64,000 bases of DNA, taken from Bacteroides neonati (GTDB lineage: Bacteria > Bacteroidota > Bacteroidia > Bacteroidales > Bacteroidaceae). The stretch is taken from assembly GCF_000499785.1 (NCBI RefSeq), contig NZ_HG726020.1:372001-436000 (forward strand). Direction: 5' to 3'. Of this stretch, positions 5,685-60,581 are shown piece by piece; within the stretch, counting starts at the first letter, position 1; every line of letters begins with the position of its first letter. The notes beneath the pieces were generated by a model that ran no database searches, was not told the origin of the DNA, and saw only the letters and a program-made list of their open reading frames with translations. Made by a program: the position numbers and the translations under genes.

Positions 5685-5779
5685 AGTCAGAAAATATTCC
5701 ATCTACATTTTAACAGTGTTAATTGTATCTAGTCTTGTGCGGATCTATTTATACAAGAGTATATAGACTTGGCATGAAA

Positions 5780-5814: not shown

Positions 5815-6108
5815 AACACAGCATTAAAATAGTTCTTTTGCAAACAAAGAGAAGCATTATAAAAACTAATTAAAAATAAGAAAACAAGATACTAATAATC
5901 AATAACTTAAATAGACACCAAAACTTATTTCAACTCATTGCTGTCTATTTTAGATCAAGCATCTCCTACTATAATATCAGCTCTTAATAGCAATGATACT
6001 TATGCATTTATCAAGTTCATTTTTTTTTCGGCGCAATACTTTTTATGGGGAAAAGAGAGGTTGTTGATTTGCTCGATCGAAAGCCCTTAGAAAAAACAAT
6101 GAGTCAAA

Positions 6109-43013: not shown

Positions 43014-43040
43014 CTAAATCTTTTTTAATTATTTCGAGCA

Positions 43041-43048
43041 CAAAGATA
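43041..43048 (-). promoter_or_regulatory. Putative -7 box of the FadL-like gene
   Basis: The minus strand reads TATCTTTG, 28 bases upstream of the start codon. Confidence 0.55.
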
Positions 43049-43261
43049 CAACAATACTACACAAATAACATATAATTGTGCAATTAATTTCGTTAGACAC
43101 ACCGATTTGATTCAAAAACGAATAGTTTCTAATGTAACTATACAACTCTCAAGTACTTCAAACGAAACATAAATGAAGTGAAGAAGAAAAACTTTTCTTC
43201 AGAACCAATGTTTAATTATAAATAGGGTAAAGAGTACTTAATTATAAAACAGAGCATAACA

Positions 43262-43966: not shown

Positions 43967-43974
43967 CATTGCCT

Positions 43975-44619: not shown

Positions 44620-44685
44620 TTTTCGCCCGATTCCTTGCCTAATACACGGGGAATCTGTAATATTGCAATTCTAAATGACAAACTT

Positions 44686-45417: not shown

Positions 45418-45429
45418 CACATAATAATT

Positions 45430-46461
45430 ATGAACAGATTAACACACCTTTTTCTTGTATTACTTTTAGCCTGCGTACCTATGGGTATCATGGCTCAAGA
45501 CAATGACGATAATGATGATAGCAGATACCTGGTAGGCGCAGTGCCCGAGGTAAACGGCAAAGTTGTCTTTTCAAAAGAGTTCAGCATCCCCGGCATGTCT
45601 CAACAGCAGATATTCGAGCGCATGCAAAAATGGCTTACCGAACGACTAAAAGCGAACAACAACGTGGATAGCCGCGTAGTATATACCGATGCAGAAAAAG
45701 GAACCATAGCCGGTGTTGGCGAAGAGTGGTTGGTGTTTAAATCAAGCGCTCTGTCACTAGACCGCACGTTGCTGAACTATCAAATCACCATCGGCTGCCA
45801 ACCATCCAAGTGCTTGGTCGAAGTAGAGAAGATACGCTATACCTATCGCGAGAAAGAGAAATACACAGCCGAAGAGTGGATCACAGACAAGTATGCACTC
45901 AACAAAGCACAGACCAAACTGGTACGCGGTCTTGCCAAATGGCGCAAAAAAACAGTAGACTTTGCCGATGATATCTTTGCCGAAGCAACCAAAGCATTAA
46001 GTGCATCGAACAGTCAACCTCAAGTAGAGAAAGCTCCTAAAAAGGCAGCTGTAACCTCAGGCCCTGTAGTTATCGGTGCTGCTACCCCTGTTAGCTCTCC
46101 CGATATGCCCGGATATAGAAGCGTTGCACCCGATCAATTACCGGCCGGTGCCATTCAGATGGGTAGCGGCAAACTCGTAATTGCCATCGGCAAGGATGCC
46201 TTCAATATGACCATGATGACTGCCAATGCCGGCGGATCGTTGGGCAAAGTATCCGGAAAACCTGTCGTATTCAGCATCCTATCGCCCGACCAACCTTATG
46301 AGTCGTTCGAGAAGGCAGATACCTACTCGGTACGCTTCTACCCCACCAACCAAACTGAGCCATCGGTTATTCTCGAATGTAAGAAACTACCCGCAGCCGC
46401 TCCGATGGAAGGACAACCCCGTACATACGTAGGTGAAATTGTAAAAGCTTGGATGAAATAA
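45430..46461 (+). CDS. Secreted DUF4468 (TBP-like fold) protein
   Basis: A 343-aa protein with a signal peptide (about 1-22, GIMAQ). An N-terminal DUF4468 domain (about 35-150) contains VVFSKEFSIPGMSQQQIFER and KCLVEVEKIRYTYREKE. A Pro/Ala linker (about 190-225) precedes a C-terminal domain that may be another small beta fold. Function unknown; the family is common in Bacteroidota. It is probably co-transcribed with the MBL gene upstream and the glyoxalase-like gene downstream. Confidence 0.85.
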   Translation: MNRLTHLFLVLLLACVPMGIMAQDNDDNDDSRYLVGAVPEVNGKVVFSKEFSIPGMSQQQIFERMQKWLTERLKANNNVDSRVVYTDAEKGTIAGVGEEWLVFKSSALSLDRTLLNYQITIGCQPSKCLVEVEKIRYTYREKEKYTAEEWITDKYALNKAQTKLVRGLAKWRKKTVDFADDIFAEATKALSASNSQPQVEKAPKKAAVTSGPVVIGAATPVSSPDMPGYRSVAPDQLPAGAIQMGSGKLVIAIGKDAFNMTMMTANAGGSLGKVSGKPVVFSILSPDQPYESFEKADTYSVRFYPTNQTEPSVILECKKLPAAAPMEGQPRTYVGEIVKAWMK

Positions 46462-46494
46462 AAGAAGAGTTGAATAACCCCAAAAACAATCGTT

Positions 46495-46878
46495 ATGGAA
46501 ATAAAAGCAAGATTTGACCATTTCAATATCAATGTAACCAACCTCGAACGCAGCATTGCTTTCTACCAGAAAGCACTCGGGCTCAAAGAACACCACCGCA
46601 AAGAGGCCGCCGACGGCTCTTTTGTATTGGTTTACCTGACCGATGAGTCGACCGGATTCCTATTGGAACTAACCTGGCTCAGAGATCATACCGATAGCTA
46701 TGAACTGGGCGAGAATGAGAGCCACCTCTGCTTCCGTGTGGCAGGCGACTATGATGCCATTCGTCAATATCACAAAGAGATGGGTTGTGTCTGTTTCGAG
46801 AACACCTCGATGGGGCTTTACTTCATCAACGATCCGGATGACTACTGGATAGAAGTATTGGGGGAGAAAAAGCACTAA
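46495..46878 (+). CDS. VOC-family protein (glyoxalase I-like)
   Basis: A 127-aa single VOC-domain protein. The two beta-alpha-beta-beta-beta repeats are visible. Metal-site candidates are the His in RFDHFNINV, Glu in LLELTWL, His in SHLCFRV and Glu in YWIEVLG, matching the ligand set of glyoxalase I. It may detoxify methylglyoxal, but substrate assignment is not certain. It ends with a hairpin terminator at 46904-46939. Confidence 0.88.
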   Translation: MEIKARFDHFNINVTNLERSIAFYQKALGLKEHHRKEAADGSFVLVYLTDESTGFLLELTWLRDHTDSYELGENESHLCFRVAGDYDAIRQYHKEMGCVCFENTSMGLYFINDPDDYWIEVLGEKKH

Positions 46879-46903
46879 TTAGCTTCCCTTAAAAAGTATA
46901 TTT

Positions 46904-46939
46904 TCAGCGAAACATTCTCTTTCAGAAGTGTTTCGCTGA
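46904..46939 (+). terminator. Terminator after the VOC gene
   Basis: TCAGCGAAACA (46904-46914) and TGTTTCGCTGA (46929-46939) form an 11-bp perfect stem, followed by TTTTG. Confidence 0.85.
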
Positions 46940-46986
46940 TTTTGTTTATTAGCTATCAAAAGAATCTTCATGACTCTCCCATTATT

Positions 46987-47520
46987 TCAAAATGCTACTC
47001 CTACTTTTAAGAACAAAGAGTGTCGGGATTGATTCATTTTTGAGCTACCATCAATCGAATAACTACAGTAGTTGTAACCGATAGCCGGAATAATGCTGAT
47101 TCTCTTATCCAGTAACTTGTATCCGAAAGAAAAATCGAATAACCACTTGCCATCTTTATTATTTTCAGATGTAGCCAGATTATAACCGACATCACCATTT
47201 AGTAAAAACCGCTTGTTGGTGAACGGGTGATACCTAAAGTCGATAAACACAGGTAGCGTATTCAGACCCTCCAGCTGCGTGTAGCTATTGATCCCAATAC
47301 CGGCACCTAAAGACAAATCGGGAGTTACATAATAGCCAAGCAAAGCCCTGATTAAGCTCATGGCTATTTTGTGGTCGCTACCGTATGACACATCATACGC
47401 ATCTCCTTTGTCGGAGAGTGAGATTCCGTAACCTACCTCAACAGCACCCCAAAGCTTGCGGTTCTGTGCATACGAACAAGTTGCTGTGAACAGCAGGACA
47501 ACCAATAATAGTTTTCGCAT
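46987..47520 (-). CDS. Small outer-membrane beta-barrel protein
   Basis: A 177-aa protein with a signal peptide (about 1-18, CSYAQ). The mature part has the alternating pattern of an eight-stranded barrel (GAVEVGYGISLS, LSLGAGIGINSY) and ends KVGVAF with the terminal Phe of barrel proteins. No function can be assigned. It is isolated, convergent with the VOC gene and separated from it by a terminator. Confidence 0.82.
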   Translation of the reverse strand: MRKLLLVVLLFTATCSYAQNRKLWGAVEVGYGISLSDKGDAYDVSYGSDHKIAMSLIRALLGYYVTPDLSLGAGIGINSYTQLEGLNTLPVFIDFRYHPFTNKRFLLNGDVGYNLATSENNKDGKWLFDFSFGYKLLDKRISIIPAIGYNYCSYSIDGSSKMNQSRHSLFLKVGVAF

Positions 47521-47666
47521 ATCAATTTTATTTAGTGAATCTTATACCTTTCCACGTTTCGTTGAAGTAACAGGCACTAAACATATCCAGAGCTCCGATT
47601 ATAAATGCCGTTGGCGTAAAACCAACTCATCCGTCAAGCCAGATTCTTTTTGACTGATCAAACATC

Positions 47667-47852
47667 CTATTTATGTCTGGCCGCTCTTTTTCTTCGAATT
47701 TCCGCCTTCATCTTGGCCGAATCAGAACCGTGCAAACCTTTAATGTATTTTGCTTTTTTCGCCTTTGTTTTCACCTTTTTGTCATCTTTTCCGGTCGATT
47801 CTTTCTTCCCTTTAAAGACAATTCCACCGAACATTGCATCCTCTATACTCAT
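47667..47852 (-). CDS. Small highly basic protein
   Basis: A 61-aa protein: an N-terminal hydrophobic patch (IEDAMFGGIVFKG) followed by a Lys/Arg-rich tail (DKKVKTKAKKAKYIKGL, EIRRKRAARHK). No signal peptide or transmembrane helix. Composition suggests nucleic-acid or ribosome binding. That it is real is supported by an exact -7 box 34 bases upstream and by an AGAGAAAG purine run before the ATG. I do not recognise a characterised family. Confidence 0.65.
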   Translation of the reverse strand: MSIEDAMFGGIVFKGKKESTGKDDKKVKTKAKKAKYIKGLHGSDSAKMKAEIRRKRAARHK

Positions 47853-47885
47853 AATCTTTCTCTATTAATTCATTTTTTCTGTGGA

Positions 47886-47893
47886 CAAAGATA
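47886..47893 (-). promoter_or_regulatory. Putative -7 box of the small basic protein gene
   Basis: The minus strand reads TATCTTTG. Its expected -33 position coincides with the -7 box of the divergent methyltransferase gene at 47914-47921. Confidence 0.55.
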
Positions 47894-47913
47894 ATCGTTT
47901 TCTGCGAATTACC

Positions 47914-47921
47914 TATCTTTG
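47914..47921 (+). promoter_or_regulatory. Putative -7 box of the methyltransferase gene
   Basis: TATCTTTG lies 27 bases upstream of the ATG at 47949. It is back-to-back with the divergent box at 47886-47893. Confidence 0.55.
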
Positions 47922-47948
47922 CAGGCTATAACAATAAACAACCATTCG

Positions 47949-48680
47949 ATGGAAACAACATTGCTTGCTCCCGAAAAGGACCCGATGGGTGCCGCCATAG
48001 CCGATTACTTTAACCTGCATAAAGCCGGAAAACTACGTGTATTCTCTTCTCAATTCGACGAAGACGAAATCCCCGTCAAAGACCTCTTTCGTACCACCAA
48101 GCTGATGCCTTTACTCGAACGTACCGCACTCGAATTAGCTTCGGGACGCATTCTTGATGTAGGTGCAGGCAGCGGATGCCATGCATTGGCTCTTCAAGAG
48201 CAAGGCAAAGAGGTATGTGCCATCGACATCTCTCCGCTCTCTGTCGAGGTGATGCAGAAGCGTGGTGTGAGCAACGCCTGCTTGGTTAACTTGTTCGACC
48301 AGCGGTTTACCGATACGTTTGATACCATCCTCATGCTTATGAATGGTTCGGGCATCATCGGCCGACTGGAGAATATGCCCGCTTTCTTTCAAAAGATGAA
48401 ACAACTTCTTCGCCCGGGCGGATGCATCCTAATGGATTCGAGCGACCTACGCTATCTTTTCGAAGACGAGGACGGCAGCTTCTTGATTGATCTGGCAGCC
48501 GATTATTATGGAGAAATCGACTTCCAGATGCAATACAAAACCATCAAAGGCGAATCGTTTGATTGGCTATACGTTGACTTTCAAACACTCAGCCTCTACG
48601 CCGCCGAATGCGGTTTCAAGACCGAGCTTATCAAAGAGGGCAAGCACTACGATTATCTGGCGAAGCTGACGGTTGAATAA
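47949..48680 (+). CDS. Class I SAM-dependent methyltransferase
   Basis: A 243-aa soluble protein with SAM motif I ILDVGAGSGCHALAL, motif II EVCAIDISPLSV, and a later LLRPGGCILMDSSDLRYLF. Substrate unknown. The start is the ATG at 47949 after the promoter; an earlier in-frame codon falls in the -7 box. It ends 1 base before the stop of the convergent TlpA-like gene. Confidence 0.88.
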   Translation: METTLLAPEKDPMGAAIADYFNLHKAGKLRVFSSQFDEDEIPVKDLFRTTKLMPLLERTALELASGRILDVGAGSGCHALALQEQGKEVCAIDISPLSVEVMQKRGVSNACLVNLFDQRFTDTFDTILMLMNGSGIIGRLENMPAFFQKMKQLLRPGGCILMDSSDLRYLFEDEDGSFLIDLAADYYGEIDFQMQYKTIKGESFDWLYVDFQTLSLYAAECGFKTELIKEGKHYDYLAKLTVE

Positions 48681-48681
48681 A

Positions 48682-49275
48682 TTATTTTTTCAACTCTTCA
48701 TCTATCGCCTGTACCAACGAGCTGAACTCTTCTTCATTGTATAGACGAGTCAGCTTAAGTATCTTTCCATCGCGACCAATCAGTACATTGCGCGTAATAC
48801 CCGACTGACGAAGCGCATACTTCGCAAAAATATCAGCACCCGGATCGAGCCCCATCGGATAAGTAACACCCGTAGCTTTCATAAAAGCAAGTACTTTATC
48901 CAATGGCTCATCGCGGTCGATACCGATCAGCATGAACTGCGGGTTGCTTTTATTCTTCAACCAAATATCTTTCTCGATAAAAGGCATCTCTTTGCGACAT
49001 ACGCCACACCAACTGGCTGTAAACTGCAACATCACTACCTTACCGCGCAATGACGACAGGCTTACCTGCTTACCGTCGGTCAAGGTGATGGTAAAGTCGG
49101 GTGCCATCTGCCCTACTTTCACTATGTAACCGGTACTATCGGCTTCGACTGCCGTTACATTCGTTTCATCGGTAGCCGCAGCTACCTCTTTGTTCGCCTT
49201 CGCCTGTCCGGCACATGCCACGTTGCTTAACGCAAACAGCCCTAAACAACAGATACTTAAAAAAGTTTTCTTCAT
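48682..49275 (-). CDS. TlpA-family thioredoxin-like protein
   Basis: A 197-aa exported protein: signal region about 1-22 (FALSNVACAG, possibly a non-standard lipobox), a linker, then a thioredoxin/AhpC-TSA fold at about 55-195. It has VGQMAPDFTITL and the active-site CxxC in ASWCGVCRKEMP. A later GITRNVLIGRDGKI holds the cis-Pro region in altered form, since Thr rather than Pro follows the Ile. It probably acts as a periplasmic thiol:disulfide reductant. Monocistronic. Confidence 0.9.
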   Translation of the reverse strand: MKKTFLSICCLGLFALSNVACAGQAKANKEVAAATDETNVTAVEADSTGYIVKVGQMAPDFTITLTDGKQVSLSSLRGKVVMLQFTASWCGVCRKEMPFIEKDIWLKNKSNPQFMLIGIDRDEPLDKVLAFMKATGVTYPMGLDPGADIFAKYALRQSGITRNVLIGRDGKILKLTRLYNEEEFSSLVQAIDEELKK

Positions 49276-49300
49276 CCTTTTAATCTTATTTACTTTCGAG

Positions 49301-49308
49301 CAAAACTA
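49301..49308 (-). promoter_or_regulatory. Putative -7 box of the TlpA-like gene
   Basis: The minus strand reads TAGTTTTG, an exact TAnnTTTG match, 26 bases upstream of the start. Confidence 0.45.
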
Positions 49309-49610
49309 CAAAAAAGTATTTTATTATCCTTGTATATTCGATAATTATTTGCAAAATGGCTCTACCTACGAATCGAGCACCGCAAGGAATAACGAAATAG
49401 TAGACGAAGTTGCTGAATACACAAGTATCTCTGTAAATAGAATAAATATTAAAGGAAAAGAGGAAGTAAGTAATGATGAAAAAAGCAGAAGAAACAAGAG
49501 GTATGAAAATGATATAAAATATTGAAAAACAATAATATACAGAATTATAAATCAAGTATACATACTATTATTTTTCTTAGCTTGCAAAAGAACTATTTTA
49601 ACGGTGCGTT
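49309..49610. other. A/T-rich stretch without a recognised gene
   Basis: About 300 bases between the TlpA promoter and the palindromic element. Plus-strand frames give only short peptides with no start or family signal. The base composition is noticeably more A/T-rich than the flanking core genes, consistent with the edge of an acquired segment. Confidence 0.5.
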
Positions 49611-49668
49611 AAGTACGTAGTCTTGGTAGCAATGAGTACGTACTCTTTGTTACTAAAACTACGTACTT
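49611..49668. repeat. TACGTA palindromic element, copy 2
   Basis: AAGTACGTAGT (49611-49621), the central palindrome GAGTACGTACTC (49634-49645) and ACTACGTACTT (49658-49668) form a near-symmetric 58-base element. Its left 35 bases match 5780-5814 in inverted orientation. The reading frame at 49632 starts inside it. Confidence 0.75.
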
Positions 49669-49943
49669 TTGCTATAGAAGCTATTAAAAAGCTGTTTAAC
49701 GGCGAAATACTGCCCTTTACCGGCAAGCTCCGATCCCCCGAACATAACCAAGATTTCAATGTACAGGATGCCAAGTTGCAACTGTTCAAAGAACGGGATA
49801 ATCCGGACAGATTCCGTCTTTCCCTCAATAGTCAGAATATCCTCTACTGGTTCAAACAAAAATATCAGGAATTGAAACAGGTTGTTAAACCTCATATTAG
49901 ACCTACTATAAAGCCGGAAGTGAGCAAAAGTTTTAAGAGGTAA
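49632..49943 (+). CDS. Short ORF starting within the palindromic element; possible gene remnant
   Basis: 103 codons. The first residues (MSTYSLLLKLRTF) are encoded by the TACGTA element itself, and the rest ends in a basic tail (YWFKQKYQELKQVVKPHIRP). The LNSQNILYWFKQKYQEL segment faintly recalls the C-terminus of Bacteroides mobilisation/relaxase-type proteins, but I cannot confirm this. It may be a degenerate fragment carried with the element. No promoter of the usual type was seen. Confidence 0.4.
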   Translation: MSTYSLLLKLRTFAIEAIKKLFNGEILPFTGKLRSPEHNQDFNVQDAKLQLFKERDNPDRFRLSLNSQNILYWFKQKYQELKQVVKPHIRPTIKPEVSKSFKR

Positions 49944-50004
49944 TCCGTGCTGTATACCAATTATTTACTAAATTTGCAGGCAATAACAAAAATATAATAG
50001 CTTT

Positions 50005-50847
50005 ATGAGCGGAAGTCATTTTACTTCGTTAAACCCTCAACATAAGTTGTTTGGCGAGCTTAAAGAAACTGCACCTGCTTGGTGGCAATTTATAAAAGAG
50101 AATATCAAGCCGGGCGGCTTTTATATAGATATTCGCAAGAATAATTCCCTGAATGTCTATTATAATGGAGGTTCGTTGCTTAAAATCACATTGTCGCAAG
50201 GCGGGATTAAGGGCAAAATACATGAGTTTTACTTGGGCAGAACAGGTTCAAAATATATTGATTATGAATTGCCCCACTTACCAGCAGATGCTGATAGTAT
50301 AAAAAAGAGGATAGCCTTGAGGTATAGCGATACATCGGAAAGTGGTATCAAAGCAAGACTTATATGTTCTTCCGGAACAAATTACATAGACTCCGAATTT
50401 GCTTTTCCTGAAATAGTTGGCAAGAAAATAAATTCCAAAGGGGAAGAAGTACCGGATTATCTGACAACCCGTATCGATCTTACTAAAATCGAAAATGGCA
50501 AAATTATCTTTGTAGAGTTAAAACGAATTGAGGATAGTAGACTTCTCACTAATGAGTATGAGAATGGCAGCCCTGAGATACTCTCCCAAATGGGAGCATA
50601 TAATCAATTCACCCAAAAACACAAACAAGAAATAATCGAGTATTACAAAACTCTTTTCGCAATAAAACGTGACCTTGAGATATTGCCTCTTAGTTTGGCC
50701 GGTATAGATAACATAGATGAATATGAGCTTTGTGAGAATGTGGAACTATATATAGAACCTTATAATAAACTGAATCAGGCACGGATACGAAGAATTGAAG
50801 CTATTAAAACAATTCTCAACAGAAACAATATCATTCATAATCTATGA
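50005..50847 (+). CDS. RecB-like PD-(D/E)XK nuclease-domain protein
   Basis: A 280-aa protein without signal peptide. Residues about 145-190 show a PD-(D/E)XK core: Asp148 in TTRIDLTK, Glu161-x-Lys163 in FVELKR, and a QMGAY segment at 185-189 fitting the QxxxY motif of RecB/Cas4-type nucleases. The N-terminal 120 residues are alpha/beta and unrecognised (SGGIKGKIHEFYLG-like basic stretch). It overlaps the downstream beta-CASP gene by 4 bases (ATGA), so the two are translationally coupled and probably act together. I know no characterised protein with this exact layout. Confidence 0.7.
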   Translation: MSGSHFTSLNPQHKLFGELKETAPAWWQFIKENIKPGGFYIDIRKNNSLNVYYNGGSLLKITLSQGGIKGKIHEFYLGRTGSKYIDYELPHLPADADSIKKRIALRYSDTSESGIKARLICSSGTNYIDSEFAFPEIVGKKINSKGEEVPDYLTTRIDLTKIENGKIIFVELKRIEDSRLLTNEYENGSPEILSQMGAYNQFTQKHKQEIIEYYKTLFAIKRDLEILPLSLAGIDNIDEYELCENVELYIEPYNKLNQARIRRIEAIKTILNRNNIIHNL

Positions 50848-52133
50848 AAATCATCGTTCATAGGGGTATAGACCAGATCGGAGGTTGTATAACGGAAATA
50901 TCTACCGTCAAAGCCCGGATATTGATTGATCTGGGACAGAACTTACCAAATGGCGAGGGGGTTGTAGATGATGATTTGGCAAGCCATGAAGCGATAGAGT
51001 CGATCACGCAAGGCGTTGATGCCGTATTCTATACTCACTATCATGGCGACCATTTAGGACTATTCCATTATGTTCCTGATAATGTTAGACAATATATAGG
51101 CAAGGTTGCCAAGCGTGTCGCATTATGCAAACACAGACAACTTTCATATATCAAAGGTCGTGAGCAACAATCGAAAGAAGAAATTGCTAAACTTGAAGGA
51201 ATGGGCGAACTCTCTCCCGGACAAACAATAACCGTGGGAGATATCAAGATAACTCCGTTTTTTGTAAGCCACTCGGCTTACGATGCTTATATGTTCCTAA
51301 TCGAAGCGGACGGCAAAAGAATGCTACATACAGGCGACTTCAGAGGGCATGGATATTTGAGTAAAGGCTTACTACCAACCATTGAAAAACTTATCTTATC
51401 GCAAGGTAAAGTTGATTTTCTGATTACTGAGGGAACTATGCTTTCGCGGCTTGGCGAAAAAGTGATGAGCGAAAACGAGTTGCAAAGGAAAGCTGGGGAA
51501 ATAATGACACGCTACAAAAACGTGTTTGTGATGTGCTCCTCTACGGATGTGGAACGTATAGCTACATTCTATGCATCGAATAAGCGATTAAAGTACAGAC
51601 CGTTGGTGTGTGACCACTTTCAAAAGAATATCCTTGAGATATTTACAAAATCGGCAGGCGAACATACTCCGCTGTTCCGTTTTGATGAAGCCTATGATTT
51701 CAATCCAACCAATACCAAATTGTTGGATTGGATGGAGGATAAAGGCTTTTGTATGTTTGTTCGAGCAACTGACAAGTTCAAGGATTACTATCAGGCACTT
51801 GCATCCCGGTTAGACCCAAATGAAACAATACTGATATATTCCATGTGGAAAGAGTATATAAATGACAACAGTAAGCACGCTGTGCAGCGATATATTGACT
51901 TTGTTTCCATGTTCCCCTATATGGAGACGCTACATACAAGCGGACACGCTTCCGCCGACTGCCTCGCAAAAGTATGTAATCTTGTAAATCCGGTTCTTGG
52001 AATAATTCCTATTCATAGTGAAAATTCGGCAAGCTATAAAAATTTGCCAATTAACGAGCATTTACAACAGATAATAATCACTTCATCAAATTCTACAGGT
52101 CATGTGGAGATTAGAATAAATCAAAGTCTATAA
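50844..52133 (+). CDS. MBL-fold beta-CASP nuclease-like protein (RNase J-related)
   Basis: A 429-aa cytoplasmic protein. The zinc motif is THYHGDHLG (His65-x-His67-x-Asp69-His70), with His143 in VSHSAYDAY and Asp165 in HTGDFRGHG. A beta-CASP insertion (about 200-370) is suggested by LITEGTMLSR and TSGHAS (His368), and the C-terminal IPIHSE (His391) resembles the RNase J/CPSF73 motif. These enzymes cut RNA or DNA. It is shorter than RNase J (about 555 aa) and lacks its C-terminal domain. It is coupled to the PD-(D/E)XK gene by a 4-base overlap. Confidence 0.8.
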   Translation: MKIIVHRGIDQIGGCITEISTVKARILIDLGQNLPNGEGVVDDDLASHEAIESITQGVDAVFYTHYHGDHLGLFHYVPDNVRQYIGKVAKRVALCKHRQLSYIKGREQQSKEEIAKLEGMGELSPGQTITVGDIKITPFFVSHSAYDAYMFLIEADGKRMLHTGDFRGHGYLSKGLLPTIEKLILSQGKVDFLITEGTMLSRLGEKVMSENELQRKAGEIMTRYKNVFVMCSSTDVERIATFYASNKRLKYRPLVCDHFQKNILEIFTKSAGEHTPLFRFDEAYDFNPTNTKLLDWMEDKGFCMFVRATDKFKDYYQALASRLDPNETILIYSMWKEYINDNSKHAVQRYIDFVSMFPYMETLHTSGHASADCLAKVCNLVNPVLGIIPIHSENSASYKNLPINEHLQQIIITSSNSTGHVEIRINQSL

Positions 52134-52211
52134 TCGCAGAGAGCAACACCTATTTGATGTTTTTTATAAGGAATCAGCATATTCTTTGTTGTTTATAGAA
52201 TGATTATAGTT

Positions 52212-52682
52212 TCATGGAAGATACTTATTCAGTGTTGGAATCCTTTTTAAGTCTTTTTCCCTGCCAAAGAAAGATAAGATTCTTTTCTGCTCTTCAAGGG
52301 TAGGTATTCTGATTATTAAATTTCCGATGAATATTTCTCTATATTTTTCCACACAAACAGGTAACCAAACATTGTTTTTCTTGATTTGAAGGTCTCCCAT
52401 GACCTCTATATCCATTAAAGGAAGATGGAATCTGGCAAAATTGGAACGAAATAAATCATTCTCTTTTGTTTTTGGAGCAACTTCTATATACCTACTTAGT
52501 AGTTGCTGTAATTTGAGTGAGTTTGCTTCGGTAGTCAAAATATCAATATCAAAAGTTTCCCCTATCTCTACCTCCGATAGAATCATAGCAGATGCACCTA
52601 TGATATAAAATTCAGAACTTATTTCCTGTAGCTCAATAGCTATGCTCGCAAGGGTCTGAGTTATTTTGTCTTTAATCTTCAT
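52212..52682 (-). CDS. Nucleotidyltransferase-fold protein (MNT/AbiEii-like)
   Basis: A 156-aa protein. YIIGASAMILSE and FDIDILTT (Asp45-x-Asp47) fit the minimal nucleotidyltransferase active site. The remaining helical region includes LEEQKRILSFFGREKDLKR. Members include substrate-binding or toxin-like enzymes such as AbiEii and MNT. It is convergent with the nuclease pair (79-base gap), and no antitoxin partner is adjacent. It is probably part of the same acquired segment near tRNA-Cys. Confidence 0.65.
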   Translation of the reverse strand: MKIKDKITQTLASIAIELQEISSEFYIIGASAMILSEVEIGETFDIDILTTEANSLKLQQLLSRYIEVAPKTKENDLFRSNFARFHLPLMDIEVMGDLQIKKNNVWLPVCVEKYREIFIGNLIIRIPTLEEQKRILSFFGREKDLKRIPTLNKYLP

Positions 52683-52981
52683 ATTTCTATTATCTATAGC
52701 AAAAGTACATAATATATTTCAGGATAATAGCAAAAGACGATCCAATTCAGCAGATAAACCGATACCTTATTATAGAAAGCTGGAATCCGATTTGGTATCA
52801 ATTCCCCGATAGGCTCCTACCATTTCGCAGAAACAGGACTCAAACCATCAAACTTTGTTGTTTCTCAAAACATCTTAAATGAGTCAAGGTAGTATCAGAG
52901 GCATATTCTAAAATATTCTCTTGCCTCTGAGGTACGTCGCAACGTGTCACCCTATGCCACTAAATTGGAATCCACAAAGAA
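52683..52981. other. Non-coding stretch between the accessory genes and tRNA-Cys
   Basis: About 300 bases with no start-to-stop frame of note on either strand. No copy of the tRNA 3' end was found here, so no attachment site can be called. It may hold decayed gene sequence. Confidence 0.5.
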
Positions 52982-53016
52982 AAATCCCCTAAAAGTAATT
53001 GACTTTTAGGGGATTT
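52982..53016 (-). terminator. Terminator of tRNA-Cys
   Basis: A perfect 15-bp stem: AAATCCCCTAAAAGT (52982-52996) and ACTTTTAGGGGATTT (53002-53016), with a 5-base loop. On the minus strand a T-rich run follows. Confidence 0.88.
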
Positions 53017-53029
53017 AGAGTAACGATGG

Positions 53030-53100
53030 AGGTTCCTGGCGGATTCGAACCGCCGTAGACGGTTTTGCAGACCGGTGCCTAGCCACTCGGCCAAGGAACC
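53030..53100 (-). tRNA. tRNA-Cys (anticodon GCA)
   Basis: 71 nt on the minus strand. The acceptor stem GGTTCCT pairs with AGGAACC, and U73 is the discriminator typical of tRNA-Cys. The anticodon loop CTGCAAA contains GCA, and the T-arm has GGTTCGAATCC. CCA is not encoded. A strong promoter lies upstream and a terminator downstream. It is adjacent to an accessory segment. Confidence 0.97.
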
Positions 53101-53121
53101 CTGTTTTCCGTTTTGCGGTTG

Positions 53122-53152
53122 CAAAGGTAGTACAAATTTTCAAACTACCAAA
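53122..53152 (-). promoter_or_regulatory. Promoter of tRNA-Cys
   Basis: On the minus strand TTTG (53152-53149) as -33 and TACCTTTG (53129-53122) as -7 are separated by 19 bases, an exact Bacteroides promoter. Confidence 0.75.
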
Positions 53153-53244
53153 AAACTCTATCTCTTTTTTAATACACATCTATTCTGAAAGCGTAAGAAA
53201 CCGTTTTTTTGCACAACCTTCAACGGGAATTAAAGGAAATCACG

Positions 53245-53252
53245 TACATTTG
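53245..53252 (+). promoter_or_regulatory. Putative -7 box of the hybrid two-component regulator gene
   Basis: TACATTTG, an exact consensus match, lies 23 bases before the ATG. No -33 element was found at the right distance. Confidence 0.5.
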
Positions 53253-53275
53253 TATCGATCTAAAGACAGGATAAA

Positions 53276-56200
53276 ATGAAAAGCACCTACCTATTTTTAA
53301 TTATTGCACTCTTTTCCCTTTTTCCCTCGGCACAGGCCAACGGCTCGGCATACTATTATTTTAAACAGATATCCATCAAAGAAGGACTCCCCTCTTCCGT
53401 AACAACCGTATACGATGGCAACGATGGCTTTCTGTGGATAGGTACCATCTATGGAGCTTATCGCTTTGATGGAGAAAAATTGAAAAGATATTCGCCGTCG
53501 GCAAAAGGACAGAACATTCCGTACATCTATCGTATCGACGGTGATAAACAGGGAAATATCTGGATGTTTCACCCCGAAGGAACCAGTCGGTACAATCCGG
53601 AGAAGGATGTCTTCGAGGCATTCCTATTCAACAATAAGCCCTTAGAGGCACACACACTTTTATCGGAAAGCAACCAACTGATTTTTCCGGTAATCGGCGC
53701 ATTGCTACGATATACAAAAGACTTGCGATACAACGGACGCATCATCGTTAAAGAAGGAGAAAAAGAGGTGCTGTGCAGAAAAATAAAGATCTATAATGAG
53801 AAATATTATATAGCCTCTACCCAATATCAACAATTGGTACTCATTGACCGCCACACGGGAGAGATACAGGAAAGCCCCTTTGGAAAACAAACTAACGTGC
53901 AAGATTTCTACGTAGACTCCAAACAAAGGTTCTGGATAGCATATTACGGCAAAGGAGTATCGTGCTATACGCAAGGAGGGAGTTTGATACGGTCCTTTCA
54001 TACGCGCAACTCTTCGCTGAGCAATGACGTGGTGTTGGATATCGAAGAGCGTAACGGAGATATTTGGCTGGCTACAGACGGAGGAGGTATTAATATCATA
54101 AGAGGAGGTACGGAAGAGATCACAGTCTTATCGAACAACAACGATCATAAATTCCCCGCCAACTCGGTAACCTGTCTGCACAACGGGGTCAACAATATGT
54201 GGATAGGAATGGTGCGCGAAGGTGTATTGGGAGCCAAGGAGAATTTCATCACCACCTACTCGAAGGTACCGCAAAACGATCCGTCGGGACTATCCGAGAA
54301 GTGCCCTTTAAGCTTGCTCGAAGACAAGGACGGCACCATATGGATCGGCACAGATGGCGGAGGTATCAACAGCTTCAACCCGAGAACAGAGCAATTCACA
54401 CATTTTCCATCTACTTCCGGTGGTAAGATTGTATCCATCTGCCCCTATTCGGATAGCGAGCTATTGGTGTCGAGCTTCACTAAAGGTATCTATCTCTTCG
54501 ATAAGAAAAGCGGGCGATACCATCGCTTTCAGGCCATGGGAAAGGTCATGGACGATGAAATCAGTTACTCCGGCAGCCCAACCAACCTATTCGTCAATTC
54601 CGAAAATGAAATCGAATTTCATGGAGAATATGCTTATCGGTATGTGCGCGACAAGAACCTGTTTACAAAGATACAAGTTCCCTCCAGGCAATATAATGAA
54701 TCGGCCATTGCCCTTGGAAACTATCAGGCAAACACGTATTATCACAACAAAAACATTGTGTTTTGTTATAACCGACAAAGCGACCGGTTTGAATCAGTAT
54801 ATAAAAAACAAGGGAATCAGATCCTAACAGCCTATCTGGAACCGACAGAAGGACGTATATGGATAGCCGAGAAAAGCGGACTGAGCATCTATCATATAGA
54901 AAGCGGGAAAACAACCCCGATCAAACTGCCCGATCAGAATGACATCGTTACCTCGCTTATCATGGATCGCAAAGGGGTTTTATGGATGGGAACCTCGGGT
55001 GCATTGTATGCCTATTTTCCCAAAGAACAGCGATTCATTCTTTTTAGTGAATCGGACGGGGTACTTCCCAACGACTTTCTACCCAAACCCGTACTACTGA
55101 CTCGCAACGGTGATGTGTACATGGGCGGTGCCATGGGGTTGGCCAGAGTCAATCAGTCCATGAACAAGCAAATGCATGAAACAAGCACTGCATTAAGAAT
55201 TAGTTTACTCGACGTAAACTTAAACGGAAACAATGTGGTGCCCAAACAGATGGGACAAGTATCCCGGTTAGAGATACCGTCGAACTTTTCATCGCTGAGG
55301 GTACATACCAAACTGGATGGAACAGACATCTTCCGCAAACGAATTTACAGGTATCAGATCGAAGGGCTAAACCATAGTTTTACCGAATCATCGAAATCGC
55401 ACTTCTTGATTCCTACTTTGCCACCGGGGCATTATCAGATTAAAGCACAATGCACACAATCAGACGGATTGTGGAGTGTACCTTTTACCCTGCTCGATTT
55501 AACTGTGCTCCCACCTTGGTGGCAACGCACCTGGTTTATATTATGTGTTGTTGCTGCACTCATCTCAGCAATCATTTATATCATTCGCCGCCGCGAAGAG
55601 CATCTGCAACAAAAGCTGAAGGAGAAAGAGCGGGAAATATACAAAGAGAAGGTGCAGGCGTTAATCAACATCAACCACGAACTACGCACGCCACTGACCC
55701 TTATTTACACGCCATTGAAGCAGTTGCTGAGTAGCAGACAAGTACCACTGGAGCTGCGAGGCAAGCTACAAGGAGCTTTTAAGCAGGCACGGCAGATGAA
55801 GAATATCATCAACATGATACTCCATATGCGCAAAATGGAGGTGGGGAAAAACACGTTGAACCTAACACCTACCTTGCTTAATGAGTGGTTGCAAGATATA
55901 GTCAACGATTTTAAAGATGAGTTCGATATGCGAAATATCCGCTTGGTTTTTGATGCGGACAGTAACATACAGACCGTCTCTTTTGATGTAGGACAATGTG
56001 AAATCATCCTTAATAATCTGCTGATGAATGCTTATAAATTTAGCCATCCGGATACTACGGTTACTGTTTCGACCCGGTTGGAGCAAGCAGGAAGTATTAT
56101 CAGGATCGAGGTATGCGATGAAGGTATCGGTCTGGGAGCAGTAGACCCGCAAGGGTTATTTACGCGGTTTGAGCAAGGAGATCATCATATTCAAGGAAGT

Positions 56201-57184
56201 GGAATCGGCCTGTCTTATGCCAAGCAACTGGTAGAGATGCATCAAGGAACCATCGGTGCCATGAATAATAAGGAGAAAGGAGCTACCTTTTATTTCACAC
56301 TGCCCAATCGGCAAGAACCGGTCTGTGTACCCTGTCCGGCAAAGCCTTATTTGAATGAGCTACTCCCCCCTCAGACACTTTCGTTGCAGAAAGCAGAAGT
56401 ATTGCCGAACCGGTTTCATTCGGTACTCATAGTAGATGATGATCCCGACTTATGCGATTATCTGGCCTGCAACCTGCAAGCTATGTTCGAGGTAATACAC
56501 ATCGCACATGACGGAATGGAAGCCATTCCCATTGTTGTATCGCACCTGCCGCAACTGATTATCAGTGACGTCATCATGCCTCGGATGGATGGATTGGAAC
56601 TCTGTAGAAAAGTTAAGCAGAGTGCCGAGTTCAACTACATTCCGGTTATCCTACTGGCTTCGCATGCCGACGAGCCAAGTACCGAAGACGGCTATAAAAC
56701 AGGAGCCGATGCTTATGTGGCGAAACCGTTCGACATGGATACCTTGCTACTACAGATACAAAACATTCTGAACCATCAGTCCATCGTACAAAAGCGATAT
56801 GCAGGTATCGAACAGGTAGAGAAGAAAGAAGGGAAAATGAATAATCAGGCAGACGAACAGTTTGTTGTTCAACTCAACAACGTGATTCGCGAGAACAGAG
56901 CCAATGTAGCACTGGATGTTAATCTGGTAGCCGAACTCATGCGTATGAGCCGGGCTTCGCTTTACAATAAGATGAAAACAACCATCGGCATCGGGGTCAA
57001 TGAATACATCACCAAGCAGCGAATAGAGTATGCCGCCCAGCTACTGATGACAACCGAATTAAGCATACGGGACATATCCGAACAAACGGGTTTCTCCCAT
57101 CAACGCAACTTTAGTACTACATTTAAGTCGTTGATGGGAGAAAGTCCGTCGGAATATAGAAAGCGAATCGTTAGCGGTTCCTGA
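53276..57184 (+). CDS. Hybrid two-component system sensor/regulator (HTCS)
   Basis: A 1302-aa protein combining all steps of a two-component system. Signal peptide about 1-22; periplasmic beta-propeller repeats (about 25-640; DGFLWIGT, GNIWMF, GTIWIGTDGGG); a Y_Y_Y domain at about 660-745; a transmembrane helix near 753-771; HisKA with phospho-acceptor His801 (INHELRTP); HATPase at about 880-1020 (NNLLMNAYKFSH, DEGIGLG, GSGIGLSYAKQL); a receiver with Asp1098 (IISDVIMPRMDG); and an AraC-type HTH at about 1195-1295. HTCS proteins bind oligosaccharide in the periplasm and activate nearby susC/susD genes. Its end overlaps the convergent sulfatase by 14 bases. Confidence 0.97.
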   Translation: MKSTYLFLIIALFSLFPSAQANGSAYYYFKQISIKEGLPSSVTTVYDGNDGFLWIGTIYGAYRFDGEKLKRYSPSAKGQNIPYIYRIDGDKQGNIWMFHPEGTSRYNPEKDVFEAFLFNNKPLEAHTLLSESNQLIFPVIGALLRYTKDLRYNGRIIVKEGEKEVLCRKIKIYNEKYYIASTQYQQLVLIDRHTGEIQESPFGKQTNVQDFYVDSKQRFWIAYYGKGVSCYTQGGSLIRSFHTRNSSLSNDVVLDIEERNGDIWLATDGGGINIIRGGTEEITVLSNNNDHKFPANSVTCLHNGVNNMWIGMVREGVLGAKENFITTYSKVPQNDPSGLSEKCPLSLLEDKDGTIWIGTDGGGINSFNPRTEQFTHFPSTSGGKIVSICPYSDSELLVSSFTKGIYLFDKKSGRYHRFQAMGKVMDDEISYSGSPTNLFVNSENEIEFHGEYAYRYVRDKNLFTKIQVPSRQYNESAIALGNYQANTYYHNKNIVFCYNRQSDRFESVYKKQGNQILTAYLEPTEGRIWIAEKSGLSIYHIESGKTTPIKLPDQNDIVTSLIMDRKGVLWMGTSGALYAYFPKEQRFILFSESDGVLPNDFLPKPVLLTRNGDVYMGGAMGLARVNQSMNKQMHETSTALRISLLDVNLNGNNVVPKQMGQVSRLEIPSNFSSLRVHTKLDGTDIFRKRIYRYQIEGLNHSFTESSKSHFLIPTLPPGHYQIKAQCTQSDGLWSVPFTLLDLTVLPPWWQRTWFILCVVAALISAIIYIIRRREEHLQQKLKEKEREIYKEKVQALININHELRTPLTLIYTPLKQLLSSRQVPLELRGKLQGAFKQARQMKNIINMILHMRKMEVGKNTLNLTPTLLNEWLQDIVNDFKDEFDMRNIRLVFDADSNIQTVSFDVGQCEIILNNLLMNAYKFSHPDTTVTVSTRLEQAGSIIRIEVCDEGIGLGAVDPQGLFTRFEQGDHHIQGSGIGLSYAKQLVEMHQGTIGAMNNKEKGATFYFTLPNRQEPVCVPCPAKPYLNELLPPQTLSLQKAEVLPNRFHSVLIVDDDPDLCDYLACNLQAMFEVIHIAHDGMEAIPIVVSHLPQLIISDVIMPRMDGLELCRKVKQSAEFNYIPVILLASHADEPSTEDGYKTGADAYVAKPFDMDTLLLQIQNILNHQSIVQKRYAGIEQVEKKEGKMNNQADEQFVVQLNNVIRENRANVALDVNLVAELMRMSRASLYNKMKTTIGIGVNEYITKQRIEYAAQLLMTTELSIRDISEQTGFSHQRNFSTTFKSLMGESPSEYRKRIVSGS

Positions 57185-58745
57185 TCGGATCGTTGTATTG
57201 CACCTGAAGTTTCAGCAGTTCTTTTTTCAACTCTTTGGTCAGTTTCTCAGTTCCCGATTGTCCGTAGAGGTTGTGCATCTCCATGGGGTCTTCCTGCAAG
57301 TCGTACAACTCCCAGCAGTCAATATCATTATAGAAATGAATCAACTTATACCGTTCGGTACGCACGCCATAATGCCTTCTTACTGCATGTTCGGCCGGAT
57401 ATTCGTAAAAGTGATAATAAAGTGACTTGCGCCAATCGGGCACTTTCTTACCCCGAAGCAACGGAAGGAATGAAACGCCATGCATATCAGACGGAGTCTT
57501 TACACCTGCCAAATCGAGTATAGTAGGGCCGTAATCGATGTTTTGCACCATCTGGTCTATATCTCCCTGTTTGCCACCGGGCAAGCGTACCAACAATGGT
57601 GTGCGAAAAGACTCTTCGTACATAAAACGCTTATCGAACCATCCATGTTCGCCCATATAAAAACCTTGATCGGAGGTGTACACAATCATTGTCTGATCGA
57701 GCAAACCGCTTTTGGCGAGGTAATCAAGTACCTTGCCTACATTACGGTCAATAGAGTGAATCACCCGTATGTAATCGTGCATATACTGCTGGTATTTCCA
57801 TTCGGCCAATGCCTTACCGGTAAGTTTAGACTCTTTGAACTTTTTGATAATTGGATCGTAGTGCTTATCCCACGCTGCTTTTTGTTCCGGATTCAGTCGG
57901 TTGTACATACTTCGCCCGGCCTGTTCGAGTCCGGTCTTGGTATGAATTTCATCCTCTTTATCGGCCATCTTGAGATCGTATATCAAATCCATGTCTTTAA
58001 TGATACTCATCTCTTGCTTGGATGCAGGGATTCTCCCCTCATACTTATCGTAGAAGTTGGCAGGAAGTGGGTACACCACATCTTCATTCAGGTCGAGGTC
58101 GCATAAATCGGGCATCCACGTACGGTGAGGAGCCTTGTGATGAAGCAACAGACAGAAAGGCTTACTCTTATCTCGCTTCGTGTCCATCCAGTCGATAGCC
58201 AAATCGGTTACGATATTGGTAGCGTAGCCTTCGCGCTGCTGCTTCACCCCATTGGTGATAAATGTGGGGTTGTAATACTCGCCTTGTCCAATGAGAATAT
58301 CCCAATAGTTGAATCCCGTAGGCGATGATACCAAGTGCCACTTACCAATGATAGCCGTCTCGTATCCTACCTGTTGCAACAACTTCGGGTACGTTTGCTG
58401 GCTACCATCAAAGGCACCGTTGCTATTGTCCATATAGCCATTCGCATGGCTGTGTTTGCCTGTCAGCATGCAAGCCCGACTGGGACCGCTAAGCGAATTG
58501 GCAACAAAACTGTTGGTGAATCGCACTCCTTCGTTGGCAATGCGGTCTATGTTGGGTGTTTGTGTGAATCGTTGATCGTAAGCACTGATTGTTTGATAAG
58601 AATGATCATCGCACATTATATATACGATATTCATTGGTTGCTTTGACTTATCCTTCTTGTTCTTCGGGCTATCAAAAGAGGAGAACGATAAAATCGTCGC
58701 TGTTCCTACTAAAGAGTTTAAAAATACGGATGTTAGTTTTTCCAT
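57171..58745 (-). CDS. Secreted sulfatase, Ser-type formylglycine motif
   Basis: A 524-aa protein with a probable signal region (about 1-25). The metal site is NIVYIMCDDHSYQ and the maturation motif SGPSRACMLTG (Ser at the catalytic position). IIGKWHL, HHKAPHRTWMP and VYTSDQGFYMGEHGW follow. The MCDDHSYQTISAYDQ start and overall length resemble GlcNAc-6-O-sulfatases (S1_11) of Bacteroides, but this subfamily call is tentative. It is the third gene of the susC/susD unit (24 bases after susD) and overlaps the regulator's 3' end by 14 bases. Confidence 0.93.
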   Translation of the reverse strand: MEKLTSVFLNSLVGTATILSFSSFDSPKNKKDKSKQPMNIVYIMCDDHSYQTISAYDQRFTQTPNIDRIANEGVRFTNSFVANSLSGPSRACMLTGKHSHANGYMDNSNGAFDGSQQTYPKLLQQVGYETAIIGKWHLVSSPTGFNYWDILIGQGEYYNPTFITNGVKQQREGYATNIVTDLAIDWMDTKRDKSKPFCLLLHHKAPHRTWMPDLCDLDLNEDVVYPLPANFYDKYEGRIPASKQEMSIIKDMDLIYDLKMADKEDEIHTKTGLEQAGRSMYNRLNPEQKAAWDKHYDPIIKKFKESKLTGKALAEWKYQQYMHDYIRVIHSIDRNVGKVLDYLAKSGLLDQTMIVYTSDQGFYMGEHGWFDKRFMYEESFRTPLLVRLPGGKQGDIDQMVQNIDYGPTILDLAGVKTPSDMHGVSFLPLLRGKKVPDWRKSLYYHFYEYPAEHAVRRHYGVRTERYKLIHFYNDIDCWELYDLQEDPMEMHNLYGQSGTEKLTKELKKELLKLQVQYNDPIRNR

Positions 58746-58769
58746 GTTAACTGATTACTTTTATATATT

Positions 58770-60569: not shown

Positions 60570-60581
60570 AATATACATAAA

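What the first reader, a model, noticed from the sequence alone, without database searches (positions are those of the whole stretch)
50005..52682. Coupled RecB-like nuclease plus beta-CASP nuclease, with a nucleotidyltransferase gene, beside tRNA-Cys
Two nuclease-type genes overlap by ATGA: a 280-aa protein with a PD-(D/E)XK core (D148, E161-x-K163, QxxxY at 185-189) and a 429-aa MBL/beta-CASP protein with complete metal motifs (HxHxDH 65-70, H143, D165, H368, H391). A convergent nucleotidyltransferase-fold gene follows. The segment is A/T-rich, lies between a palindromic element and a tRNA, and interrupts a run of core genes. I know no described system with this pair. A mobile defence or RNA/DNA-processing module is an inference.
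Basis: partly seen in the sequence, partly recalled or inferred. Interest (0 to 1): 0.78.

Follow-up and report, generated by a model that had tools for sequence, protein, structure and literature searches.

The report
Candidate two-nuclease phage-defence operon
Two overlapping genes in this gut bacterium encode a restriction-enzyme-like nuclease and an RNase J-like nuclease, a pair kept together in distantly related bacteria and, in some relatives, accompanied by miniature copies of the cell's own replication and transcription proteins, so it is probably an uncharacterised antiviral system.

Summary
The genes are as described: a 280-aa protein (Nuc, 50005-50847) overlapping by ATGA a 429-aa protein (MBL, 50844-52133). 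Models are confident (pLDDT 93): Nuc's C-terminal domain is PD-(D/E)XK-like; MBL is an RNase J/CPSF73-type beta-CASP core. Nuc has no Pfam, PADLOC or NCBIfam match.

The pair is a unit: MBL lies beside Nuc in 43 of 53 named Nuc loci, overlapping in 29, and the two co-diverge (Mantel r 0.73, 0 of 10,000 shuffles). It is patchy (Nuc in 15 of 301 family genomes) and mobile, also on plasmids, often near WYL, GmrSD or restriction genes. REase-ARP nucleases stand in for MBL in at least 5 of the other 10 loci.

Unexpectedly, in Prevotella-type relatives the operon contains or adjoins truncated host-like proteins: sigma-70 region 2, DnaE palm/fingers (some without the catalytic motif), DnaB, perhaps GyrA. 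DnaE palm fragments lie within 5 kb of Nuc or MBL at 18 of 32 places (about 0.1 expected).

Best reading: a modular nuclease-based defence system, here in a minimal version. The nucleotidyltransferase and palindrome are not part of it; nor, as far as seen, is the tRNA.

The parts
50005..50847 (+). Nuc: 280 aa; N-terminal domain about 1-108 (weakly YdhG/DUF1801-like) plus C-terminal PD-(D/E)XK-like domain 109-280 with E112, D129, E131, D158, E171, K173, Q195, Y199
   Evidence: residues invariant in 37 sequences; pLDDT 93.2; VIA: XisH Z 7.5, Upx Z 7.4, SduA Z 6.6; no Pfam/PADLOC/NCBIfam hit
50844..52133 (+). MBL: 429 aa metallo-beta-lactamase/beta-CASP nuclease core of RNase J/CPSF73 type, shorter than RNase J; H65, H67, D69, H70, H143, D165, E196, H368, H391
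   Evidence: pLDDT 93.1; Foldseek: 2az4 5e-24, RNase J about 1e-21, CPSF73 about 1e-20, Cas14 1e-18
50844..50847 (+). ATGA start/stop overlap that couples the two genes
   Evidence: 29 of 43 adjacent pairs in other genomes overlap too
49969..49976 (+). TAAATTTG, resembles the Bacteroides -7 promoter element TAnnTTTG (consensus recalled); possible promoter of the pair
   Evidence: a match to a short consensus only
49623..49943 (+). 106-aa ORF upstream, its C-terminal part related to an ORF upstream of Nuc in Bacteroides ihuae (L070) that clusters with tyrosine recombinases; possible mobile-element remnant, not thought to be a working part

Best explanation
Nuc and MBL form the effector core of a modular, horizontally transferred anti-phage (or anti-mobile-element) system. 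Shown by sequence and models: two separate proteins with complete nuclease-type active sites (beta-CASP fold firm, PD-(D/E)XK fold moderate), encoded as an overlapping pair that is kept together in Bacteroidota and Proteobacteria. Inferred: Nuc cuts nucleic acid (most likely DNA) and MBL, an RNase J-like enzyme, cuts or chews RNA; the two act as one complex or in sequence, are silent in healthy cells, and on infection degrade phage (or phage and host) nucleic acids. The gene just before Nuc differs between lineages (GmrSD, DEDD exonuclease, DUF6946, kinase, mini-sigma) and probably supplies the trigger. The window locus is a minimal version without such a third gene, so it either senses by itself or relies on a factor elsewhere.
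For: Pairing: MBL beside Nuc in 43 of 53 named loci, 29 overlapping; 11 of 15 Nuc genomes in a sample of 301; 5 of the 9 plasmid regions fetched; co-divergence over 35 dereplicated of 49 pairs, Mantel r 0.73, 0 of 10,000 shuffles. Active sites invariant. Fold: PD-(D/E)XK-like and RNase J/CPSF73-like. Patchy and mobile: Nuc in 15 of 301 genomes; L069-L071, the three closest relatives with the pair or Nuc, share no flanking gene with the window within the stretches compared, apart from the 106-aa ORF in L070; no pair in this interval in 6 chosen relatives; on plasmids near restriction, DUF262, UvrD + PD-(D/E)XK and WYL genes. Neighbours: among 148 scanned proteins WYL in 12, DEDDh, PDC-S10 and PDC-S48 in 3 each, PDC-S01 and type II RM models in single proteins; GmrSD 3 nt upstream of Nuc in G055; REase-ARP in place of MBL.
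Against: No experiment. The scan of neighbours had no matched control set. Neither Nuc nor MBL has a convincing match to a defence model. Nuc's fold matches have Z under 8, which the tool warns may be only a common arrangement, and Foldseek gives nothing at E <= 0.001. Which nucleic acid either enzyme cuts is unknown. MBL-family proteins are more common than Nuc (48 against 15 of 301 genomes), so most have a partner that the Nuc query does not recognise; those looked at have a 270-390-aa protein in that place, with a loose motif match. In a phylum-wide sample Nuc was found in only 2 of 395 genomes, the window's own and G032. Metallophosphoesterase genes near the pair (9 of 72 loci) would also fit a repair cluster. 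The window copy has no WYL, sensor or mimic gene beside it. Several of the 53 loci are near-copies, many are MAG contigs, and the scan used one Nuc peptide pattern.
Confidence: 0.62

Rival explanations
1. A mobile DNA/RNA repair or processing pair: Nuc and MBL trim broken or damaged nucleic acids, like the bacterial cluster of Lhr-core helicase, ligase, MBL exonuclease and metallophosphoesterase (recalled from the literature, not tested here).
For: Metallophosphoesterase genes near the pair in 9 of 72 loci and DEDD exonuclease in 3; replication-like neighbour proteins; UDG-like gene before Nuc in G032/L070, below its cut-off.
Against: Patchy, site-variable distribution; WYL, GmrSD and restriction neighbours; the metallophosphoesterase of L076 matches PADLOC's defence candidate PDC-S10 at 2.5e-67; some DnaE-like proteins have lost the catalytic motif.
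Confidence: 0.17
2. A maintenance or toxin-antitoxin module of mobile elements: one nuclease is toxic and the other protein or a neighbour restrains it.
For: Overlapping two-gene layout; plasmid and transposon settings, e.g. near Tn3 and CcdAB genes in Cereibacter.
Against: Both proteins keep complete catalytic sites, unlike a usual antitoxin; Nuc occurs without MBL and MBL without a recognisable Nuc.
Confidence: 0.12
3. Ordinary cargo: two unrelated nuclease genes that happen to sit together in a variable interval near tRNA-Cys.
For: In six relatives the AhpC-tRNA-Cys interval holds varied genes.
Against: Conserved adjacency across phyla and co-divergence.
Confidence: 0.03

Closest known systems
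RNase J / CPSF73 / aCPSF beta-CASP ribonucleases
   Same: MBL has the MBL + beta-CASP core and the metal and beta-CASP motifs, including His391 at the last motif (His in RNA-acting members, Val in SNM1/Artemis: recalled); the best named PDB matches are RNase J and CPSF73
   Different: 429 aa against about 550 for RNase J; far below the RNase J curated cut-off; paired with Nuc; the host genome has no second match at E <= 1
E. faecalis EF2904 (PDB 2az4), structural-genomics protein of unknown function
   Same: Best sequence-profile and fold match to MBL (2e-29; 5e-24), same length
   Different: 21% identity; its gene neighbourhood was not examined here
Cas14 of type VII CRISPR-Cas
   Same: A beta-CASP RNase used as an effector in immunity (PMC12669027, passages read); fold match 1e-18
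   Different: Cas14 works with Cas7/Cas5 and a crRNA and has a Cas10-like C-terminal domain; MBL is far below the Cas14 cut-off
MBL-trypsin 'gated nuclease' pairs of Hachiman, AVAST, Lamassu, DRT and canu loci
   Same: MBL-superfamily nuclease acquired as a pair by defence systems (PMC12799240, passages read)
   Different: There the partner is a protease and the MBL enzymes resemble DNA-uptake nucleases; here the partner is a PD-(D/E)XK-like protein and MBL is of RNase J type
PD-(D/E)XK proteins XisH, Upx, Shedu SduA, Can2/Card1 (fold membership recalled)
   Same: Fold of Nuc 109-280 (VIA Z 7.5 to about 5.0)
   Different: No sequence match found; other domains; Z under 8
REase-ARP / PDDEXK_13 (PF22558, PF20796)
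   Same: Takes the place of MBL downstream of, or fused to, Nuc in five loci: four by Pfam, L079 by a home-made profile
   Different: A PD-(D/E)XK nuclease by Pfam, not a beta-CASP enzyme
Mza system (mzaABCDE)
   Same: Contains MzaA, called a sigma factor in PMC9523054 (passages read), which a mini-sigma protein matches at 9e-22
   Different: No other Mza model is among the 25 PADLOC families shown, of 156 that matched the neighbours; the match covers the widespread sigma region 2

Membership tests
PD-(D/E)XK nuclease superfamily (Nuc) | Core D ... (D/E)xK catalytic triad, conserved | tested here: met
   D158, E171, K173 invariant in 37 sequences; present in the window protein
PD-(D/E)XK nuclease superfamily (Nuc) | Restriction-endonuclease-like alpha/beta fold | tested here: inconclusive
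   Top VIA rows are XisH, Upx and SduA, which I recall as this fold, but Z is at most 7.5, and Foldseek finds nothing at E <= 0.001
PD-(D/E)XK nuclease superfamily (Nuc) | Nuclease activity | not testable with these tools
   No assay
beta-CASP family of MBL nucleases (MBL) | MBL motifs HxHxDH, H, D and beta-CASP motifs A (D/E), B (H), C (H) (motif scheme recalled) | tested here: met
   H65, H67, D69, H70, H143, D165, E196, H368, H391, all invariant in 31 sequences
beta-CASP family of MBL nucleases (MBL) | MBL domain with inserted beta-CASP domain | tested here: met
   Model pLDDT 93; near-full-length Foldseek matches to RNase J and CPSF73, TM about 0.6-0.7 by query
RNase J proper | About 550 aa with a C-terminal domain; NCBIfam TIGR00649 cut-off of 400 bits | tested here: not met
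   429 aa; 48.2 bits
Type VII CRISPR-Cas (Cas14) | Cas14 profile; Cas7/Cas5 genes in the operon | tested here: not met
   NF045584 at 21.7 bits against a cut-off of 800; none of the neighbouring window genes scanned matches a Cas family
Gated MBL nuclease with protease (Hachiman/AVAST/Lamassu/canu) | Adjacent trypsin-like or caspase-like protease | tested here: not met
   No protease among the window genes scanned beside the pair; none among the 25 Pfam families shown, of 129, for 148 neighbours elsewhere
Any system in PADLOC-DB 2.0.0 | Convincing match of Nuc or MBL to a model | tested here: not met
   Nuc: none; MBL: LmuA 0.0015 and GajB 0.026 only
Anti-phage defence system in general | Protects cells from phage | not testable with these tools
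   Only genomic context is available

The most novel reading that the evidence does not exclude
The pair is the effector half of a bait-and-kill system. In relatives, small truncated copies of essential host machines act as baits for phage take-over proteins: sigma-70 region 2, DnaE palm and fingers (some with the catalytic motif lost), DnaB C-terminal domain, and perhaps a GyrA/ParC piece. When a phage inhibitor binds the bait, exchangeable nucleases (Nuc + MBL, REase-ARP, DUF6946 proteins) are released. This would be a prokaryotic counterpart of the integrated decoys of plant immune receptors, with swappable baits and swappable effectors.
Probability: 0.25. Interest if true: 0.93.

Novelty: new variant of a known kind. 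Interest (0 to 1): 0.72.

Why it matters
Nuc matches no model in the libraries searched, and no description of this pair turned up in ten paper searches (open-licence papers only, word lists that miss synonyms). If it is a defence system, it would join a PD-(D/E)XK-type and an RNase J-type nuclease in one unit, patchily spread in gut Bacteroidales and present in Proteobacteria. The mimic proteins in its larger relatives would make a clear question testable: whether bacteria use fragments of their own replication and transcription enzymes as decoys to sense phage take-over.

Tried and rejected
RecB-like assignment: the RecBCD and AddAB chains appear in the Foldseek list only at E above 0.1, so I did not keep the narrower label.

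The DUF6036 nucleotidyltransferase as a third component: rejected, because a 77%-identical copy lies in the same interval of G691 without the pair and it is in none of the recurrent neighbour families listed.

The palindrome as an operator or mobile-element end: rejected, because it belongs to a dispersed repeat. The shared promoter-like string near 49663 and 52711 (inverted repeat I1) was not followed; the first copy lies in that repeat.

tRNA-Cys as an attachment site: not supported. The only listed direct repeat that touches the tRNA is a 15-nt, 87% match inside the Nuc gene (50165-50179 and 53026-53040). The genome has a second tRNA-Cys match about 98 kb away.

Empty-site comparison: of the relatives I fetched six in which the AhpC-like gene and tRNA-Cys were close on one contig. 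In others, e.g. G032, G163, G191, G693 and G719, they are far apart or on different contigs, so the interval is not conserved throughout the genus.

Foldseek on Nuc gave no significant match. PDB sequence search with the Nuc profile gave nothing credible. The phylum-wide search with profile A2 matched 2 of 395 genomes. Nuc had no match in phages; MBL had four weak ones (23-25% identity), not followed. Solved-structure searches with the 127-aa GyrA-like fragment and the 177-aa protein before Nuc found nothing, so the GyrA label rests on a Pfam match just below its cut-off (30.4 against 31 bits). A PADLOC model named Cas3c also matched 12 of the 148 neighbours; I take these to be the WYL proteins but did not check.

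Papers: PMC9122601, PMC9519451 and PMC10952713 were searched for a few MBL, RNase J and sigma words and hold none of those asked. PMC11090510 names an MBL-fold protein only in a figure legend on genes associated with CoCoNuTs (passages); I could not tell whether it is related.
Full report
WHAT IS THERE. The window is contig 2, bases 372001-436000, of a 5.02-Mb genome. Genomes of the same genus include, by equal contig lengths, those of Bacteroides ihuae (L070 = G032) and B. ndongoniae (L116 = G149). tRNA-Cys is at 53027-53100 on the minus strand.

WHAT THE PROTEINS ARE. MBL matches Lactamase_B_2 (2e-11) and, by NCBIfam, RNase J (TIGR00649, 5e-13, but 48 bits against a cut-off of 400). A profile of 31 sequences finds 2az4 at 2e-29, RNase J at about 6e-24, Cas14 at 8e-13, CPSF73 at 6e-10 and SNM1A only at 1e-3 in the PDB. 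Its model (pLDDT 93.1, pTM 0.92) matches 2az4, RNase J and CPSF73 over nearly its full length. With His391 at the last motif it is of the RNA-acting type (the His/Val rule is recalled). Nuc has no match in Pfam, PADLOC or NCBIfam. In 37 sequences (30-69% identity to the window's) D158, E171, K173, Q195 and Y199 are invariant, with E112, D129 and E131. Its model (pLDDT 93.2, pTM 0.89) has a C-terminal domain whose best structural matches are XisH Z 7.5, Upx Z 7.4, Shedu SduA Z 6.6, EndoMS Z 6.2, Can2 Z 5.6 and Card1 Z 5.4, proteins that I recall as PD-(D/E)XK folds. These scores are middling and Foldseek alone finds nothing below 0.001, so the assignment leans on motif and fold together. Residues 8-113 resemble a YdhG-like protein weakly (Z 5.3).

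THE PAIR IS A UNIT. Of 53 named Nuc loci, 43 have MBL next to it and 29 of these overlap. In the sample of 301 genomes of the window's family Nuc is in 15, and 11 of these have MBL within 1.5 kb. On plasmids, 10 records hold an MBL relative; 9 regions were fetched and 5 carry a recognisable Nuc beside MBL: Ochrobactrum, Rhizobium phaseoli, Cereibacter, Sphingomonas sp. NIC1 and Cupriavidus. Across 35 dereplicated of 49 pairs the two distance matrices correlate with r 0.73, and 0 of 10,000 permutations reach it. Against: several loci are near-copies, many are MAG contigs, and the scan that found them used one Nuc peptide pattern. MBL relatives are in 48 of the 301 genomes, more than Nuc; of the 54 MBL places that I tabulated most have no partner that the Nuc query recognises. 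In the loci I aligned, the protein before MBL is a 270-390-aa protein with an ID...E-x-K pattern, but that alignment is loose for the most divergent rows. In a phylum-wide sample the Nuc profile matched 2 of 395 genomes, the window's own and G032.

MOBILITY AND DISTRIBUTION. Nuc is in 4 of the 22 same-genus genomes that one search lists. The three nearest relatives (L069 Bacteroides sp. 214, L070 B. ihuae, L071 Bacteroidaceae HV4-6-C5C) share with window bases 42000-62000 only the pair (Nuc alone in L070) and, in L070, a remnant ORF. Six relatives chosen because both markers lay close together have the AhpC-like gene and tRNA-Cys 5.6-10.5 kb apart with other genes in between and no pair; one of them carries the 156-aa nucleotidyltransferase (77% identity) without the pair, so that gene is separate cargo. 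The palindrome at 49611-49668 is part of a roughly 100-nt repeat with at least 39 other places in this genome by my count.

DEFENCE CONTEXT. In G055 (L050/L071) a gene with both GmrSD domains (1.9e-29, 2.7e-17) ends 3 nt before Nuc. In Ochrobactrum and Rhizobium plasmids the pair is near DUF262, UvrD + PD-(D/E)XK, N6-methylase, Eco57I-type and GIY-YIG genes; in Butyrivibrio and Prevotella plasmids MBL is within 7 kb of WYL, McrC or DUF262 genes. Of 148 neighbour proteins (120-900 aa, within 1.9 kb, from 41 loci; chosen), 12 match WYL, 5 MzaA, 3 each PDC-S10, PDC-S48 and DEDDh (25 of 156 matched families are shown). This scan has no matched control. At least 5 of the 10 Nuc loci without MBL have a REase-ARP nuclease downstream or fused (Pfam for L073, L075, L086 and L100; home-made profile for L079). 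That looks like exchange of effectors.

THE UNEXPECTED PART. In 72 loci examined together, a WYL gene is within 4.5 kb in 24 and a sigma-70 protein in 12. Most of these sigma proteins are short (about 100-220 aa). The one of L095 matches region 2 of RpoS and SigA in the PDB (1e-29), and seven compared are 37-51% identical to a full-length sigma paralogue of L100 over that region. In 6 loci they end 12-61 nt before Nuc; in 3 they lie between Nuc and MBL and overlap MBL's start by 1 nt; in L093 the corresponding frame is interrupted by a stop. A second group are fragments of DNA polymerase III alpha: a 166-aa palm piece, a 195-aa finger piece, and single-chain forms that span DnaE residues about 300-790 but lack the PHP and C-terminal domains; where the real DnaE of L091 has PDIDIDF, L061, L066 and L100 read KFQFDF, TFTFEV and KFQFDI. 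Single-chain forms in L096, L109 and L073 keep part of that motif, so not all need be dead. A profile of the palm piece, run on the 301 family genomes, gave 32 places in 30 genomes. Of these, 18 lie within 5 kb of an MBL or Nuc place, against about 0.1 expected if placed at random in 2.8-Mb genomes (a rough estimate). Of the other 14 I fetched 10: 9 have a WYL gene, 6 a sigma fragment, and 6 a nuclease-type gene (REase-ARP, DUF6946 or, in L192, a divergent Nuc; one of the six, L188, is below the Pfam cut-off); none has MBL or a typical Nuc, though four contigs end nearby. So the mimic module is separable from the pair, which is evidence against its being an obligatory part. Two loci (L187, L196) hold a DnaB C-domain fragment beside the palm piece (Pfam 2.5e-67 for L196; L187 by profile). 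L100, L195 and L109 hold related short proteins, of which that of L100 resembles a GyrA/ParC segment just below the Pfam cut-off.

HOW IT MOST LIKELY WORKS. Committed reading: a two-nuclease effector of a modular defence system, with the trigger supplied by an exchangeable upstream gene or by Nuc itself. Shown: gene coupling, intact active sites, folds (MBL firmly, Nuc moderately), mobility, association. Inferred: substrates, silence before infection, activation, protection. In the boldest version the host-like fragments are baits for phage take-over proteins; I give it 0.25. Alternatives for the fragments are dominant-negative inhibitors of host transcription and replication, or regulators (a sigma factor driving its own operon). 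The window locus carries none of them.

KNOWN OR NEW. No library model covers Nuc; MBL is a divergent beta-CASP protein. Known immune uses of MBL enzymes differ: Cas14 in type VII CRISPR (PMC12669027, passages) and protease-gated nucleases (PMC12799240, passages). A sigma factor occurs in the Mza system (PMC9523054, passages). I rate it a new variant of a known kind, namely a nuclease-based candidate defence system, with a larger claim possible for its mimic-bearing relatives. On checking this report against the calls I corrected several counts; none required a change of odds.

Noticed in passing
L185-L194 (e.g. L190 8005-10843, L191 1613-4460); also L088-L103, L115: A recurrent Bacteroidales module: WYL gene, exchangeable nuclease-type gene (REase-ARP or DUF6946), truncated sigma-70 protein and a DnaE palm fragment, often in divergent orientation, in several loci without Nuc or MBL.
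   Followed up: partly
L196 6918-7583, L187 6900-7565: DnaB helicase C-terminal-domain fragment (221 aa; Pfam DnaB_C 2.5e-67 for L196) between the DnaE palm fragment and a metallophosphoesterase.
   Followed up: partly
L100 8165-8548, L195 2198-2566, L109 11192-11926: Short related proteins near Nuc; the first resembles a GyrA/ParC segment (2.4e-7, 30.4 bits against a cut-off of 31).
   Followed up: partly
49570-49672: Copy of a roughly 100-nt dispersed repeat with an inner 58-nt palindrome, with at least 39 other places in this genome by my count (one at about window 5750-5853).
   Followed up: partly
L076 9850-10353, L113 9850-10353, L095 9846-10175: Uncharacterised 109-167-aa proteins between Nuc and MBL; those of L076 and L095 have no Pfam match.
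   Followed up: partly
L111 8132-8665 and relatives (L099, L102, L104, L106, L108, L112, L116, L121): A 177-aa protein family just before Nuc, with no Pfam or PDB match for L111; in L099 the 452-aa Nuc frame also matches it, which suggests a fusion.
   Followed up: partly
L070 8289-8975: A protein with weak, below-cut-off similarity to uracil-DNA glycosylases directly upstream of a Nuc gene that has no MBL.
   Followed up: no
44635-45417: Another MBL-fold gene in the window (260 aa, simple metal-dependent hydrolase type by eye only), apparently unrelated to the pair.
   Followed up: no
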